Of a stretch of DNA of 60,313 nt, positions 3,889-10,335 are shown one piece after another. Under the pieces are notes generated by a model that did not search any database, was not told the origin of the DNA, and was given only the letters and a program-made list of their open reading frames with translations. Made by a program: the position numbers and the translations under genes. This DNA is from a virus, in IMG/VR virus record IMGVR_UViG_3300047476_000372, positions 1-60,313 of that record; one strand, 5' to 3'. Numbering within the stretch: position 1 is the first letter of the stretch; each line of letters starts with the position of its first letter.

Positions 3889-5035
3889 TCTTGCAAACAA
3901 TCAGTCTGTTTCTGATACTAATCTAAAAGATGCTGTTGATACTGGAGTATTTTCAGCAGGAGGCACTGCATTTCCATCTCCTACTCAAAATAAGGAAGTA
4001 ACTAAATCTAGATGTGAGAGTTATATTAATATTCAAAATATAAAAAATCCTTCTTTTTTAGTTAAGTCTAGTAATCAAATTATTACTAAAGAGGATATTT
4101 ATAATGTAGGAGACTTTAGATTAGACCCTCAATACGGAAAGGTATTTACAAATATGACTGGAACTAATCTTCCTTCATTTACTTTTAACGTAACTTCTAA
4201 CACAATAAAGCAATATAATAATATAATTCCTGCACAAAATATATTTGTAGAACTTACAGGAAATGCTTTTGTAAGCCCTGTTAGAGTATCACTATATATT
4301 AATAGTGTATTAATACAGAGTGTAGCCATAGCTCAGAATGGTGCAACATCAGCTACATTAACTTTGCCAAATGATGTCTCTCCGACTAATGAAATAAAGA
4401 TATCTGTAGACTCTGGTTCTGTTCCTCCTTCAGGTTCTTTTACATTTGGAAGTACGCCCGTAAACTGTGTTGCTGTAAGTAAGAATACTGGTCAATATCA
4501 GATAGCTTCAATAGGTGTTTGGGATTATGATGTATCTGGATTTACAAGATGCGCTACTAAAGGGGGTTATATATGCTATTCTTCTGATTATGGTGCTACT
4601 TGGTATAAGTCTAATGTCACAGGAAACTTCTGTAAATTGGCTATATCTGATAATGGTCAATATGCTATTGCTGCTTCTCAAAGCGGTTACCTATATAGGT
4701 CAACTAATTTTGGGGCAACTTGGTCTGCAGTTACTTCTCTAGGCGAAAAAGTATGGAGTGGAGCTGATATTGGAGCTAATATGTATGTTTGTTCTAGAAA
4801 AACAAATGGCGCAACAGAGGGTAAGGTTTATAAGTCTACAGACAATGGAGCTAGTTGGACAGACGTCACTCCCGCTTCTTCTAAAGATTTTAGTGCAATA
4901 GGTGTATACGATACTAAGTCTGGTACAGAACAAATTATTGTTGGTTCTTATTATAGTGACCTAAGATTAGCTTATTATCTTTCTGTTAATAGTGGAACAA
5001 GTTGGTCACCTTATTCAATACCTGTTTCAGTTTAA
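3875..5035 (+). CDS. Tail-associated beta-propeller protein with Asp-box (BNR) repeats
   Basis: The C-terminal two thirds contains four copies of the Asp-box pattern S-x-D-x-G-x-T/S-W (for example SSDYGATW, STNFGATW, STDNGASW), the signature of sialidase-like beta-propellers. The N-terminal region of about 180 residues has no motif I recognise and may anchor the protein to the fibre. The start overlaps the end of the S74 fibre gene by 14 bases, implying co-translation. It is likely a virion surface protein that binds or trims host glycans. Asp boxes alone do not prove enzymatic activity, and no catalytic Arg triad can be assigned by eye. Confidence 0.75.
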   Translation: MPWSSLANNQSVSDTNLKDAVDTGVFSAGGTAFPSPTQNKEVTKSRCESYINIQNIKNPSFLVKSSNQIITKEDIYNVGDFRLDPQYGKVFTNMTGTNLPSFTFNVTSNTIKQYNNIIPAQNIFVELTGNAFVSPVRVSLYINSVLIQSVAIAQNGATSATLTLPNDVSPTNEIKISVDSGSVPPSGSFTFGSTPVNCVAVSKNTGQYQIASIGVWDYDVSGFTRCATKGGYICYSSDYGATWYKSNVTGNFCKLAISDNGQYAIAASQSGYLYRSTNFGATWSAVTSLGEKVWSGADIGANMYVCSRKTNGATEGKVYKSTDNGASWTDVTPASSKDFSAIGVYDTKSGTEQIIVGSYYSDLRLAYYLSVNSGTSWSPYSIPVSV

Positions 5036-5045
5036 AATATATATA

Positions 5046-5462
5046 ATGGCATATTCACGTATAGAAAGCATTGTTGACATTAAGTTTAGGTTTGGTACTG
5101 CAGTAATATCATGTAATGAATATTATTACAATAATATTTCTAGAATTGTTAAATCAAGCAATGGGATATCTTGGCAAAATATTACAACAGATACTAATGG
5201 AAAATTCTTTGATGTTGCTTTAAATGATTTCCCAGATTGTTTTGTAACTTACCTACCATTAAGTGGTGGAGTATATGGTACAGACTACTTAAAAAAAATA
5301 ACAGGCTTATCTACAGTATCAAATGTTACTTCAAGCGGGTCTAGGTCTTGGCAATGTGTAGATATAGATAACTTTAGTGGCGCTAATAAGTACATACTAG
5401 TTGGAACCGATAATGGATTATATAGGTCTAATGACGGTGGGGCAACTTTTACTGCTTTATAG
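5046..5462 (+). CDS. Small Asp-box protein, companion of the upstream propeller
   Basis: The protein has about 138 residues starting MAYSRIES. I chose this ATG over an upstream in-frame one because it lies ten bases after the previous stop in an A/T-rich leader and the start resembles other virion genes here. It ends with a clear Asp box, RSNDGGATF, and has an earlier degenerate one (KSSNGISW). It looks like one or two further blades of the same propeller carried as a separate chain, or a broken-off paralogue. Function beyond a tail surface role is not visible. Confidence 0.7.
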   Translation: MAYSRIESIVDIKFRFGTAVISCNEYYYNNISRIVKSSNGISWQNITTDTNGKFFDVALNDFPDCFVTYLPLSGGVYGTDYLKKITGLSTVSNVTSSGSRSWQCVDIDNFSGANKYILVGTDNGLYRSNDGGATFTAL

Positions 5463-5472
5463 ATATATTAAT

Positions 5473-5480
5473 TAAATTTG
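5473..5480 (+). promoter_or_regulatory. Bacteroidetes -7 element TAAATTTG
   Basis: It matches TAnnTTTG, 21 bases before the next start. No TTG -33 element is seen at the usual distance. Confidence 0.4.
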
Positions 5481-5501
5481 TAAAACTTAAAATAAAATAA
5501 A

Positions 5502-5771
5502 ATGGCAAAAGTTCAACCAGTAAATGTACCAAGCGTTGGCGTTGGTACTACATTAGAAGTAACAGTACTTCCTTTCAGCACAAGAGCAACAACTGTCCAG
5601 ACTTGGAACAAATTGGTTGACGACGAAGGAAAGGAAGTAATCCCTGCTTGGAATTACACTTTAACAGAAGAGGAGTATAACTCATGGGGTGTAGACAATT
5701 CAGTAGTGGATGATTATGTAGCTGCAGATAAGGGTCTTGTAATCATACCTGACGCTCCAGAAGCAGAATAA
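5502..5771 (+). CDS. Hypothetical protein, 89 aa
   Basis: A small acidic protein with no recognised domain; the composition suggests a beta-rich fold with an acidic C-terminal tail. It lies between the propeller genes and a strong terminator, so it closes the tail-fibre transcription unit. The A-rich leader before ATG is typical of highly expressed genes here. It could be a minor virion protein; nothing in the sequence identifies it. Confidence 0.7.
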   Translation: MAKVQPVNVPSVGVGTTLEVTVLPFSTRATTVQTWNKLVDDEGKEVIPAWNYTLTEEEYNSWGVDNSVVDDYVAADKGLVIIPDAPEAE

Positions 5772-5885: not shown

Positions 5886-6338
5886 ATGGCAAAAGTAACT
5901 AAAACGTATCAGGAGCTAATTCAGCTCGCAAATGCAATCAACATTTTATCTAACTCTAAGGAACATGTAGAGGCTAATACAAAAGGTGTAAAGAAGCTAC
6001 AGAAGATTGGGGGTAAGATTAAGTCAGAACTAGAGGCTTACAATGAGAAGCTAGAGGACTTGAGACTAGACAATGCGCATACAGATGAGTCTGGTGCGCT
6101 TATCCTTGACGAAAAAGGTGGATATAAGTTTAGCAAGGATGGGTTGAAAAAGCTTAATAAAGATATTAAAAAGCTGTTAGAGGACACTTTTGAGTTCTAC
6201 CAGTTTACATTCTCTCATGAAGGTCTTGAACTTTATGGATTCCTTGAGGGATGGGTAGAGGGTCTTAATTTCCCTAAAGAAGAAGTAGAAGCTGAAGAAG
6301 TAGAAGAAGCGCAAGTAATTTCTATGGAAGCTGAATAA
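5886..6338 (+). CDS. Hypothetical coiled-coil protein, 150 aa
   Basis: A Lys/Glu-rich, mostly helical protein with a long heptad-like stretch in the first 110 residues and a strongly acidic tail made of repeated Glu-Val/Glu-Ala. It has its own promoter and its own terminator, making it a monocistronic unit between tail and lysis genes. Such isolated, well-delimited genes are often strongly expressed, but the function is unknown. Confidence 0.75.
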   Translation: MAKVTKTYQELIQLANAINILSNSKEHVEANTKGVKKLQKIGGKIKSELEAYNEKLEDLRLDNAHTDESGALILDEKGGYKFSKDGLKKLNKDIKKLLEDTFEFYQFTFSHEGLELYGFLEGWVEGLNFPKEEVEAEEVEEAQVISMEAE

Positions 6339-6419: not shown

Positions 6420-6983
6420 ATGAGAGATATCATATTCATGCTCACGATACTATGCCTTTCTTTCTTTTTATATAGAGAATGTAACAAGGAGCCTATAGTT
6501 ATTGAAGGAGAGCCATACGATGTATTAAAGATTGTCAGAGATACAGAGTATATACCATTTAAGGTTGTACTACCACAGGACACTTTGATTAAGGATACTA
6601 CCATCTATGTAGATGTCCCATACCTAGATTCATCTATGATTGACTCTGTTCTTAGGGAATATTATTCGAAATCTGTATATGTCGATACGGTAGGTGTAGG
6701 TAAGTTTGGCTACCTGTATATTCAGGATACGGTAAGTCGTAACTCTATAGTCAATAGGATGCTTTCTGCTGACCTAACGTTCCCTTCGTATAGGGATACC
6801 ATATACCTAGGTCAACAGCTACGTAATGGGCTTTATTTGGGCTCTAGAATGGATTTAACAGAACGTGGTATATTCTTAGGGCCTTCTTTGATGTATCTTA
6901 AGAATAATAAGATATTTAGTGGTTCGTTTAGTTTAGGTGGAGGAAAGCCATTTTATAGTGTAGGAATGAATATAAAGCTATGA
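6420..6983 (+). CDS. Membrane-anchored lysis-region protein (possible spanin)
   Basis: The N-terminus has one hydrophobic segment (about residues 4-18), followed by a Cys and about 165 residues that would lie outside the cytoplasmic membrane. The C-terminal third resembles a small beta-rich outer-membrane-type segment (ending FYSVGMNIKL). It is first in an overlapping cassette with a two-helix membrane protein and the endolysin, so a spanin-like or envelope-bridging function is plausible. This rests on topology and position only. Confidence 0.6.
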   Translation: MRDIIFMLTILCLSFFLYRECNKEPIVIEGEPYDVLKIVRDTEYIPFKVVLPQDTLIKDTTIYVDVPYLDSSMIDSVLREYYSKSVYVDTVGVGKFGYLYIQDTVSRNSIVNRMLSADLTFPSYRDTIYLGQQLRNGLYLGSRMDLTERGIFLGPSLMYLKNNKIFSGSFSLGGGKPFYSVGMNIKL

Positions 6984-7258
6984 GGATACTAGAGATATTT
7001 AGGGATGAGAAAGGTAACTACTCCTCAAACAGATTTGTAGGCGTATTGTCAGGTTTATCCTTATGTGCATGTTTAATTATATCAGCAGCCTCACACAGGG
7101 AAATTACCCCACATGAAGGGCTTATAGATGCTGTTGTATTTATATGTACAGGAAGTCTAGGATTTGGCATGATTAATAAGGTAGCAGAAAAAATATACGG
7201 AAATGAGAAAGGACAAGGTAACACTACAGAGGATAGAGCTACTCCATCCGAAGGTTAG
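6980..7258 (+). CDS. Two-helix membrane protein, holin-like
   Basis: It starts on an ATGA overlap with the previous stop. Two hydrophobic segments (about 20-40 and 50-67) are separated by a short polar turn, with a charged tail beyond. Directly upstream of, and overlapping, the endolysin by 56 bases, it is the best holin candidate in this cassette. A second holin-like gene exists at 21047, so the division of labour is uncertain. Confidence 0.6.
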   Translation: MRILEIFRDEKGNYSSNRFVGVLSGLSLCACLIISAASHREITPHEGLIDAVVFICTGSLGFGMINKVAEKIYGNEKGQGNTTEDRATPSEG

Positions 7259-7715
7259 GGAAGAAGTTAGGGAGATTTATGATGAAATCTGTACTAGATT
7301 AACGGGTAATGCTGGATGCAGATTTACACATACCTTGAGGACGTTTAAGGAGCAGGATGATTTATATGCTCTTGGTAGAACTAAACCCGGAAAGATAGTC
7401 AGCCATGCTCGTGGTGGCCAGTCCTATCATAACTTCGGTTTGGCAATAGATTTTTGCTTAATTATAGACAAGAACAATGATTGGGTGTTTGAGGAGATTT
7501 CTTGGGACACTAAAAAAGACTACGACAAAGACGGCACATCTGAGTGGAGAGAAGTTGTAGAAGTGTTTAAAATGTATGGATGGGAATGGGCTGGTGAGTG
7601 GAAATCCTTCAAGGACTTCCCGCATTTTCAAAAAACTTTTGGTTATACCACTCCTCAATTAAAAAAGCTTTACGACTCAAAAAAGGTAGATAAAAATAAT
7701 TATGTTCTTATATGA
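7203..7715 (+). CDS. Endolysin, M15-family peptidoglycan peptidase
   Basis: This is a single-domain D-Ala/L-Ala-D-Glu type zinc peptidase. The SYHNFGLAIDF motif gives zinc ligands His76 and Asp83, and the late DFPHFQ segment gives His141. The length (170 residues) is usual for phage M15C endolysins. It cuts the peptide part of peptidoglycan at the end of infection. It overlaps the holin-like gene upstream. Its last residues, KKVDKNNYVLI, are encoded a second time about 600 bases downstream, beyond the homing endonuclease, showing that the nuclease gene entered at this gene's 3' end. Confidence 0.88.
   Translation: MRKDKVTLQRIELLHPKVREEVREIYDEICTRLTGNAGCRFTHTLRTFKEQDDLYALGRTKPGKIVSHARGGQSYHNFGLAIDFCLIIDKNNDWVFEEISWDTKKDYDKDGTSEWREVVEVFKMYGWEWAGEWKSFKDFPHFQKTFGYTTPQLKKLYDSKKVDKNNYVLI
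7680..7715 (+). repeat. Endolysin 3'-end duplication, upstream copy
   Basis: It encodes KKVDKNNYVLI and stop. The same twelve codons recur at 8278-8313 with seven base changes, all synonymous. The copy ends in ATGA, which also starts the GIY-YIG gene. Confidence 0.9.
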
Positions 7716-8287
7716 AGTTGAAGTCTGGTATATACTGCATTAAATGTTTAGAAAATGGTAAAATGTATATTGGAAAAAGCATTAATATCACAGATAGAAG
7801 GCAGAAGCATTTCAACTTACTAAAAAGAGGTATTCACGATAATAGAAAAGTCCAAAATTCATATAACAAATATGGTAAAAAGTCGTTTGTTTTTGGAGTA
7901 ATAGAGTTTTGTGAAGTTGATAAGTTATCTGAACTGGAGTCATTTTATATGAAAAAATACAATTCTTTTGATAAAAAGAATGGATTTAATATAAGTAGCG
8001 AAAATTGTGGTTTTACGGTACAGTCAGAGGAAACTAAACAGATTTTGAGAGATATAAGGTCTAATGTGTCTAAAACTGTATATGCCTTCACTAAAGAGGG
8101 AGATTTTGTTAAAAAATGGGATAGCATAAGCTCTTGTGCAAGCGAATTAAATGTAAATCCATGTGATGTAAGAAGGACAATTAGTCAAAAACAGAGATTT
8201 TGTAGGAATTTAGTGCTAAATGATACCAAAGAGTTTAGGCTAAGGGGGAATATGAGGGTATACAACAGGAAAAATATAAGAAAGTAG
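7712..8287 (+). CDS. GIY-YIG homing endonuclease with NUMOD1 domain
   Basis: The N-terminal catalytic domain has GIY (6-8) and YIG (19-21), a following Arg pair (29-30) and a Glu at 76 in the SELESFYM segment, as in SegA-like and I-TevI nucleases. The C-terminal region (about 122-160) matches the NUMOD1 DNA-binding helix-turn-helix (VYAFTKEGDFVKKW followed by an ASELNV helix). It starts on an ATGA overlap with the endolysin stop. Flanking duplication of the endolysin 3' end marks it as a free-standing mobile gene inserted between the endolysin and the membrane-protein gene at 8310. Confidence 0.9.
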   Translation: MKLKSGIYCIKCLENGKMYIGKSINITDRRQKHFNLLKRGIHDNRKVQNSYNKYGKKSFVFGVIEFCEVDKLSELESFYMKKYNSFDKKNGFNISSENCGFTVQSEETKQILRDIRSNVSKTVYAFTKEGDFVKKWDSISSCASELNVNPCDVRRTISQKQRFCRNLVLNDTKEFRLRGNMRVYNRKNIRK

Positions 8288-8313
8288 ATAAAAACAACTA
8301 TGTATTAATATGA
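8278..8313 (+). repeat. Endolysin 3'-end duplication, downstream copy
   Basis: It re-encodes KKVDKNNYVLI and stop in the frame of a lost endolysin end; its first ten bases overlap the GIY-YIG 3' end. Like the upstream copy it finishes in ATGA, the start of the next gene, so this is probably the original endolysin terminus. Confidence 0.88.
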
Positions 8314-9303: not shown

Positions 9304-10335
9304 TCAGAAGATATGTGATATCCTAGCTATCTGACCCTGTTCTGGGTGGTGTATAAAGGCGTCCACACCTTTTGGACTATGCTGGTAACCATTTCGTGAA
9401 TGCCACCCATCTGTTCCTGACGGACTTCTCATAGACTCAACAGTAACACCCATGTAATCCTTTGATTTCTTGTGGTGTATGTGGTGTGTATAAAAATATT
9501 TATGTTTACACTGAGACCAATCTGCACCAGTCTCGTGAGCCATTAGGAGGGCTAAATCTGTTTCCTTAGCACCGTCACCATGTGTAGTACCTATAAGGTT
9601 ATTATGGTATCTAAAATACTTCCTGTGGGCAATAGATACATTGAATGTAACTTGTTTGCTGTTCGAGAACCAAGAACTTATGGTATCTGCTAGGAAGAAA
9701 CCGGATGTGTAATCGTGGTTAGATGGGTCGTATTGTACATAAACATCGGCTACCTGCATAAGCATTTCAATAACAGATACATGTAACCACTTGGCAGTCA
9801 AGAAGTTCTCGTGCCACATACCTTCAGTATCCTGTGGGGTTCCGCTTGTAGTTGTACGTCTTGGCGTATCTGTATGTAATATATCGTTACCTATGATGTA
9901 CATAATCTTGTCTACATTAAAGCCCTGAGACTTTGTAAGTATATCTTTAACAGCTGTAGATACTCTTGTAACAGCTATGGCAGGATTATAATCTTCCCCA
10001 GTTTCTGACTTCACAGCAAGCTTACCTATGTGTATATCTGCTGGGTCTATAACCAGTAGGTGTGGTGACTTGTGTTTTTCTCTCTTTACGGCAGGATACT
10101 TAGGAGCATATGTCTTCATCTCCTCTACAATCATGTCTTTGACATCTGTGTAGGATACTATTGGATTCTTTACATTTATAGAGAAGTTCTCTCCTTTATA
10201 CCAGTAGTGCTTTACATCTTCAACAGGTATACCTTTTTCTTTACATTCTTGTTCTAGTGCTGTGTGTCTGTTTCTTATCTGAAGAAGCATGTTAAATTCA
10301 TCTTCAGTGATTCGAGGTCTAAACTGTTTAGGCAT
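9304..10335 (-). CDS. Calcineurin-like metallophosphoesterase
   Basis: The metal-binding motifs of the superfamily appear in order: D-I-H (100-102), GND (149-151), NHD (206-208), a THGDG stretch and the THHIHHKK stretch. The first 50 residues resemble a small helix-turn-helix. Homologous proteins are common in Bacteroidetes phages and may be MRE11-like nucleases or phosphatases; the substrate is not evident. It is the last gene of the leftward early block and converges on the lysis region. Confidence 0.85.
   Translation of the reverse strand: MPKQFRPRITEDEFNMLLQIRNRHTALEQECKEKGIPVEDVKHYWYKGENFSINVKNPIVSYTDVKDMIVEEMKTYAPKYPAVKREKHKSPHLLVIDPADIHIGKLAVKSETGEDYNPAIAVTRVSTAVKDILTKSQGFNVDKIMYIIGNDILHTDTPRRTTTSGTPQDTEGMWHENFLTAKWLHVSVIEMLMQVADVYVQYDPSNHDYTSGFFLADTISSWFSNSKQVTFNVSIAHRKYFRYHNNLIGTTHGDGAKETDLALLMAHETGADWSQCKHKYFYTHHIHHKKSKDYMGVTVESMRSPSGTDGWHSRNGYQHSPKGVDAFIHHPEQGQIARISHIF

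What the first reader, a model, noticed from the sequence alone, without database searches (positions are those of the whole stretch)
7680..8313. Homing endonuclease that duplicated the endolysin 3' end with only synonymous changes
The GIY-YIG gene sits between two copies of the last twelve endolysin codons (KKVDKNNYVLI plus stop). The copies differ at seven of 36 bases and every change is silent. Both end in ATGA, giving the nuclease start in one case and the start of the 52-residue membrane gene in the other, so coupling is preserved on each side. This looks like entry by gene conversion from a diverged relative that supplied its own endolysin end. The silent changes could also protect against self-cleavage or loss by recombination.
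Basis: partly seen in the sequence, partly recalled or inferred. Interest (0 to 1): 0.75.

Follow-up and report, generated by a model that had tools for sequence, protein, structure and literature searches.

The report
Homing nuclease carrying replacement endolysin tail
A selfish DNA-cutting gene sits at the very end of a phage's cell-wall-lysis gene; it appears to have brought its own differently spelled copy of that gene's last codons, so the lysis gene stays whole while the original ending is left as a remnant behind it, a trick known from fungal mitochondria and found here repeatedly in phages.

Summary
Copy 1 (7680-7715) and copy 2 (8278-8313) of the last 12 endolysin codons flank a GIY-YIG nuclease and differ at 7 of 36 bases, all silent. 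Close relatives without the nuclease (L003, L005, also L004) have a single tail. Copy 2 is their tail (3 and 1 differences from L003 and L005), and everything downstream is 98% identical to L003. Copy 1 differs from L007, a distant nuclease-bearing phage, at only 2 of 36 bases, and follows a ~370-bp diverged tract bounded on the left by 98%-identical DNA. So copy 1 came in with the nuclease, and copy 2 is the displaced resident end. The arrangement recurs: about 10 further contigs (GIY-YIG families A and B, HNH+NUMOD) at the 3' end of another M15 endolysin type, and one at an unrelated gene (L114). None of 151 nuclease-free short-M15 loci carries two tails. In the cleanest pair (L232/L234) the remnant is identical to the empty site and the incoming tail is recoded. 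This works like the C-terminal replacement described for mobile nuclease ORFs in fungal mitochondria; I found no phage report in the held literature. That the nuclease cuts the tail, and that recoding protects copy 1, is inferred and untested.

The parts
7203..7715 (+). Hybrid M15 endolysin gene (170 aa); first ~37 codons resident-like, remainder diverged from the nearest relative
   Evidence: Pfam Peptidase_M15_4 5.7e-17, PHROG endolysin 7.9e-31; identity profile against L003
7316..7679 (+). Diverged tract left of the nuclease: 295/363 identical to L003, against 349/357 just upstream and 1194/1223 from copy 2 onward; reads as the left co-conversion tract
7680..7715 (+). Copy 1: incoming, functional endolysin tail; 2/36 differences from nuclease-bearing L007, 6-7 from L003, L005 and copy 2
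7712..8287 (+). GIY-YIG homing endonuclease, 191 aa; start overlaps endolysin stop (ATGA); stop codon TAG supplied by copy 2
   Evidence: Pfam GIY-YIG 1.8e-10; PHROG homing endonuclease 2.8e-24; model matches I-TevI catalytic domain 1ln0, TMt 0.89
8072..8221 (+). Predicted DNA-binding domain of the nuclease (residues ~121-170, NUMOD/I-HmuI-like), the most conserved part within the family
   Evidence: Pfam hits below cut-off; I-HmuI 1u3e E 0.018
8278..8313 (+). Copy 2: remnant of the resident endolysin tail, out of frame with the nuclease and without its own start codon; 1/36 from L005, 3/36 from L003
8310..8468 (+). 52-aa putative membrane protein gene whose ATG lies in the ATGA of the resident tail; same neighbour as in nuclease-free L003 and L005

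Best explanation
A free-standing GIY-YIG homing endonuclease has invaded the 3' end of the phage's M15 endolysin gene. Its mobile unit includes, upstream of the nuclease, a foreign but protein-identical endolysin tail whose stop codon is fused to the nuclease start (ATGA). Proposed steps: (1) the nuclease cuts the resident endolysin near the tail codons (inferred); (2) the break is repaired from a nuclease-bearing diverged phage, copying leftward into the endolysin body (~400 bp here) and ending abruptly on the right at the resident tail (junctions and tract shown, direction inferred); (3) the endolysin is restored as a hybrid gene using the incoming tail, and the resident tail stays downstream as an untranslated remnant that still carries the next gene's start (read from the sequence); (4) the silent differences predate the transfer, having accumulated while both tails were under selection in different phages (well supported); they may also make the occupied site a poor target and reduce recombination between the copies (possible, untested).
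For: Single tail in nuclease-free L003, L004, L005. Copy 2 differs from L005 by 1/36 and L003 by 3/36; copy 1 differs from L007 by 2/36 although the endolysin bodies are only 59% identical. L007 carries a 47%-identical nuclease directly at the endolysin stop. Window versus L003: 97.8% at 6960-7316, 81% at 7317-7679, 97.6% from 8278. Recurrence: GIY-YIG family A at short M15 endolysins with GMHFEL.. upstream and MHFQL.. remnant downstream, HNH L172/L180, GIY-YIG family B L208/L216/L230. L232 against nuclease-free L234: 95.8% over 1918 bp, alignments overlap by 28 bp, remnant 0/27 different from L234's tail, incoming tail 7/27 different including a serine AGC to TCT switch. None of 151 nuclease-free short-M15 loci has two tails. 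A blind scan of 65 nuclease loci recovers these plus L114, an unrelated gene with YRKSLNSH* repeated through silent changes; none of 3978 mismatched pairs reached the scores of L059, L230, L114, L220 or L219.
Against: No cleavage data. The donor of the 7316-7679 tract is not in the collections. The endolysin 3' region is variable anyway: L003 and L005, both nuclease-free, are also only 79% identical there, and other mosaic tracts exist (4800-5760, 5940-6180), so this one tract is not proof of co-conversion. L007 has no remnant and L318's nuclease lies about 110 bp beyond the endolysin, so the remnant is not universal. The tail is only 36 bases, so the copy 1-L007 similarity rests on few sites.
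Confidence: 0.87

Rival explanations
1. Local duplication: insertion of the nuclease produced a target-site duplication in this lineage, and the two copies then drifted apart.
For: A direct repeat flanks the insert, as in a target-site duplication.
Against: An untranslated copy would not accumulate only silent changes; about 5e-7 under random change. Copy 2 stays nearly identical to nuclease-free relatives while copy 1 matches L007. In L232 the serine codon differs by AGC/TCT and the remnant is unchanged.
Confidence: 0.04
2. Recoding under selection: the duplicated tail was rewritten silently after insertion because matching copies were cleaved by the nuclease or deleted by recombination.
For: In other carriers the upstream copy has GAR (Glu) instead of CAR (Gln) right after MHF in 6 of 9, against 8 of 115 distinct nuclease-free loci; the downstream remnant keeps Gln in all.
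Against: Carriers are related, so the counts are not independent. In the window the copy 1 spelling is shared with L007, which fits inheritance from a donor without new selection.
Confidence: 0.07
3. Ordinary mosaic recombination put a nuclease-bearing block next to a diverged endolysin; the nuclease plays no part in the exchange.
For: These phage genomes are mosaic elsewhere.
Against: Does not explain why the same 3' end is hit repeatedly by several nuclease types, each with a replacement tail upstream and a remnant downstream.
Confidence: 0.02

Closest known systems
Mobile ORFs (mORFs) with foreign C-terminal in fungal mitochondria: Glomus sp. atp6, atp9, cox2, nad3; first case Allomyces macrogynus atp6 (Beaudet et al. 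2013, PMC3630166)
   Same: Homing endonuclease ORF preceded by a foreign gene end that makes a hybrid gene; native end left downstream; native end nearly identical to the element-free relative while the inserted end is diverged in DNA and conserved in protein.
   Different: Mitochondrial, LAGLIDADG (GIY-YIG in atp9), often in phase with the host gene. Here dsDNA phages, GIY-YIG or HNH, start-stop overlap, endolysin as target, and in several cases the native end became the nuclease's own C-terminus.
Free-standing GIY-YIG (Seg) and HNH (Mob) endonucleases of T4 (review PMC2988022)
   Same: Same nuclease superfamily (I-TevI catalytic fold); start overlapping an upstream stop; target in the neighbouring gene; asymmetric co-conversion known for I-TevI.
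   Different: T4 free-standing genes lie between genes; the passages of the review that I read describe no duplicated or replaced gene end, and the stem 'duplicat' does not occur in it.
T4 mobA/gene 60 with the 50-nt bypass insert (summarised in PMC5009743)
   Same: Homing endonuclease in an essential gene together with a sequence change thought to protect against its cleavage.
   Different: There the gene is split and the insert is bypassed by the ribosome; here the gene end is replaced and the protein stays whole.
HEGs at boundaries of genetic exchange in phages, with domain swapping (Barth et al. 2023, PMC10448857)
   Same: Nuclease next to an important gene at the edge of an exchanged tract; swapped nuclease and DNA-binding domains (families B and HNH share a C-terminal domain).
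   Different: Gene-end replacement did not appear in a term search of that paper.

Membership tests
GIY-YIG homing endonuclease | GIY-YIG catalytic domain with conserved Arg, Glu and Asn | tested here: met
   Pfam PF01541 1.8e-10; R29, E76, N93 invariant in the family; model fits I-TevI 1ln0, TMt 0.89
GIY-YIG homing endonuclease | Separate C-terminal DNA-binding domain | tested here: inconclusive
   NUMOD-like domains below cut-off in the window protein; well-modelled C-terminal domain
GIY-YIG homing endonuclease | Nuclease-free alleles exist as empty sites in close relatives | tested here: met
   L003, L005, L004
GIY-YIG homing endonuclease | Site-specific cleavage of nuclease-free alleles and transfer into them | not testable with these tools
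   Needs biochemistry and mixed infection
mORF-type C-terminal replacement (fungal mitochondria) | Native tail downstream near-identical to element-free relative | tested here: met
   1-3/36 differences; 0/27 in L232/L234
mORF-type C-terminal replacement (fungal mitochondria) | Inserted tail diverged in DNA, conserved in protein | tested here: met
   7/36 differences, all silent
mORF-type C-terminal replacement (fungal mitochondria) | Hybrid gene expressed with the inserted tail, native tail not used | not testable with these tools
   Inferred only: copy 2 frame has no start codon
mORF-type C-terminal replacement (fungal mitochondria) | Lies in a mitochondrial gene (setting of the described cases) | tested here: not met
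   Window is a viral record with an endolysin close to those of Riemerella and Cellulophaga phages; it works like an mORF, it is not filed as one
Group I intron or intein | Element interrupts the coding sequence and is spliced out | tested here: not met
   The endolysin frame is complete through copy 1 with its own stop; no splicing is needed to make the full protein

The most novel reading that the evidence does not exclude
Gene-end replacement is a general strategy of phage homing endonucleases: they settle at conserved 3' ends of important genes, restore the gene with a travelling recoded tail that is also immune to cleavage, and in several lineages recruit the displaced resident tail as the last strand of their own DNA-binding domain (modelled for L180, where remnant residues FQLK form the final strand).
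Probability: 0.4. Interest if true: 0.75.

Novelty: new variant of a known kind. Interest (0 to 1): 0.6.

Why it matters
It shows how a selfish nuclease can occupy an important gene with no intron or intein: it replaces the gene's end and leaves the old one as a scar. The scar orients the transfer, names the empty target site, and makes homing predictions directly testable. It also means that endolysin C-termini can be imported between phages by nucleases, and that short gene-end repeats next to nuclease genes can be used to find homing events in metagenomes.

Tried and rejected
Single-sequence search with the window nuclease found only the near-identical contig L002/L059; profiles were needed. 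Search of bacterial genomes with the nuclease profile A3 found no relative. tblastn in named phages gives only homing endonucleases below 60% identity. The named-phage relatives of the short M15 endolysin were checked in one record (Flavobacterium phage elemoA_1-9A), which shows no annotated nuclease beside the gene. Target-site duplication followed by drift was rejected on the silent-only pattern and on relatives. Chance similarity of GMHFQL with the usual end of NUMOD-type domains (G-Y-T-F) was considered for L172/L180/L208/L230 and rejected for those with DNA identity through the stop codon (L172/L180 26/27 to L187; L232 27/27 to L234); for L208 the remnant is longer (MHFQLKSIGL*) and rests on protein similarity. 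The model of L180 is poor overall (pLDDT 55.8) and only its last ~45 residues are usable. Searching for L114 relatives in named phages gave no informative empty site.

Full report
WHAT IS THERE. The endolysin gene (7203-7715, 170 aa) is an M15 peptidase (Pfam M15_4 5.7e-17; PHROG endolysin 7.9e-31). Its TGA overlaps the ATG of a 191-aa GIY-YIG nuclease (7712-8287). The last 12 endolysin codons occur twice, at 7680-7715 and 8278-8313, with 7 of 36 bases different and all changes silent. Only one in six single substitutions in this stretch is silent, and 1 of 2,000,000 random sets of seven changes kept the peptide. Nothing else in the window resembles the repeat. One detail is not: copy 2 keeps the ATGA of the next gene, but its reading frame has no start codon, so a ribosome would not normally stop there. 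The nuclease stop (TAG, inside copy 2) is 22 nt upstream of the membrane-gene start.

WHICH COPY IS NATIVE. A scan of viral contigs with the endolysin found 57 relatives. L002 is the same virus with the same nuclease (99.7% over 6.5 kb). L003 and L005 (91% endolysin) and L004 (75%) have no nuclease and one tail, followed at once by the next gene. Copy 2 differs from the L005 tail at 1 base and from L003 at 3; copy 1 differs from each of them at 6. From copy 2 onward the window is 1194/1223 identical to L003; just upstream of 7317 it is 349/357; between them, in 7317-7679, 295/363 (Fisher 4e-14 and 1e-24 against either side). Copy 1 is closest to L007 (2/36), whose endolysin body is only 59% identical but which carries a 47%-identical nuclease exactly at its endolysin stop. 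So the tail appears to travel with the nuclease. L007 itself keeps no second tail. Caution: L003 and L005 also differ strongly from each other in the endolysin 3' part (79%), and other mosaic tracts exist, so the tract alone would not prove co-conversion.

IT RECURS. Profile searches with the window and L007 nucleases led to family A: L061/L062, L063, L064, L065, L317. All sit, with an ATGA overlap, at the stop of a different, shorter M15 endolysin whose upstream copy ends GMHFELxxI* (RMHFQLKVI* in L317), while MHFQLxxI* (only its end, SQLKSI*, in L317) follows at the nuclease end: in frame with the nuclease in L061, L063 and L064, out of frame in L065 and L317. Of two sets of 80 relatives of that endolysin, 151 loci (115 distinct) lack a nuclease and have a single MHF-type tail; none has two. 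The same scan showed two further nuclease types at the same place: HNH+NUMOD4 (L172, L180; ends RNGMHFQLKSI*) and GIY-YIG family B (L208, L216, L230/L232). Families B and HNH share a C-terminal DNA-binding domain, so they are not fully independent. The cleanest pair is L232 against nuclease-free L234: 95.8% over 1918 bp up to the tail, alignment overlap of exactly 28 bp, remnant identical to the L234 tail (0/27), incoming tail different at 7/27 including a serine AGC/TCT switch and TAG/TGA. In the two HNH carriers the remnant DNA is the same, so there it seems to move as part of the nuclease gene.

A BLIND CHECK. For 65 nuclease loci I compared the C-terminus of the gene just upstream with every possible C-terminus just downstream. 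The window virus scored highest (56), then family B (49), then L114 (45), then L220 and L219 (41, 39); none of 3978 mismatched pairs (pairs of two M15 loci left out) reached these scores. The other family A loci score 30-36, at the edge of that null, and L227 and L317 do not stand out by this measure; their case rests on the alignments above. L114 is a 170-kb viral contig in which the gene before a GIY-YIG nuclease ends YRKSLNSH* and the same eight residues plus stop recur after it, out of frame with the nuclease, with six of the eight codons spelled differently and all silent (TAT/TAC, AGG/AGA, AAG/AAA, AGC/AGT, CTG/TTA, AAC/AAT). That gene matches PHROG 1314 (labelled HNH endonuclease) and is followed by an ATPase gene; it is not an endolysin.

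HOW IT WORKS. The window nuclease model (pLDDT 79) matches the I-TevI catalytic domain (1ln0, TMt 0.89) and more weakly I-HmuI, and the catalytic Arg, Glu and Asn are invariant: it is plausibly active. Best explanation: the nuclease cuts the endolysin end of nuclease-free phages, repair copies the nuclease together with the adjoining foreign tail, and the resident tail remains behind it. Published work on I-TevI reports asymmetric co-conversion because the enzyme stays bound on one side of the break (PMC2988022), which would fit a long left tract and an abrupt right junction. Shown: anatomy, empty sites, tail affinities, recurrence. Inferred: cleavage site, direction of copying, activity.

PROTECTION. 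In short-M15 carriers the incoming tail has Glu (GAR) after MHF in 6 of 9 against 8 of 115 nuclease-free loci, while remnants always keep Gln (p = 5e-5, but carriers are related). This hints that changing this codon spoils the target. In the window the corresponding evidence is only the silent spelling, which inheritance from a donor explains equally well.

REMNANT AS PROTEIN. In three nuclease groups the remnant is read in the nuclease frame. In the model of the L180 nuclease the C-terminal ~45 residues are the confident part (pLDDT block means 72-86 down to the last residue, where it drops to 54) and the remnant residues FQLK form its final strand; a related nuclease without a remnant, L221, ends GYTFIYN at that position. 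Recruitment of the old gene end as a structural strand is possible and untested.

KNOWN OR NEW. The same architecture is described for mobile nuclease ORFs in fungal mitochondria, where the native C-terminus downstream is near-identical to relatives and the inserted one is diverged (PMC3630166). I found no such description for phages in the held literature, which lacks most subscription journals. I file it as a new variant of a known kind.

Noticed in passing
L114 2380-3400: Unrelated gene (PHROG 1314 match) before a GIY-YIG nuclease ends YRKSLNSH*; the same eight residues plus stop recur after the nuclease, out of frame, with silent recoding.
   Followed up: partly
L180/L172 and L208/L230: HNH and GIY-YIG nucleases share one C-terminal DNA-binding domain and the same target gene end, an apparent swap of catalytic heads.
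   Followed up: partly
L221 1253-2310: A further HNH nuclease of this group lies just behind yet another M15-like gene (ends DWQHFQYGLPI*) with no remnant tail.
   Followed up: no
L317 1078-1500: The endolysin upstream of the nuclease appears frame-disrupted before its intact tail.
   Followed up: no
L318 1380-2640: A family A nuclease about 110 bp behind an intact endolysin; the frame after its stop does not resemble an endolysin end, so it may have entered another gene.
   Followed up: no
window 4800-5760 and 5940-6180: Other tracts where the window and L003 fall to 63-82% identity: mosaic exchange of unknown cause.
   Followed up: no
phages record OQ791282.1: Named Shigella phage Henu10, yet its endolysin hit has the same coverage, identity and coordinates as Riemerella phage vB_RanS_PT15; possibly a mislabelled or mixed record.
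   Followed up: no
window 9304-10335: Minus-strand gene matching PHROG 'DNA repair exonuclease' (4e-69) though without a Pfam hit at 0.01.
   Followed up: no
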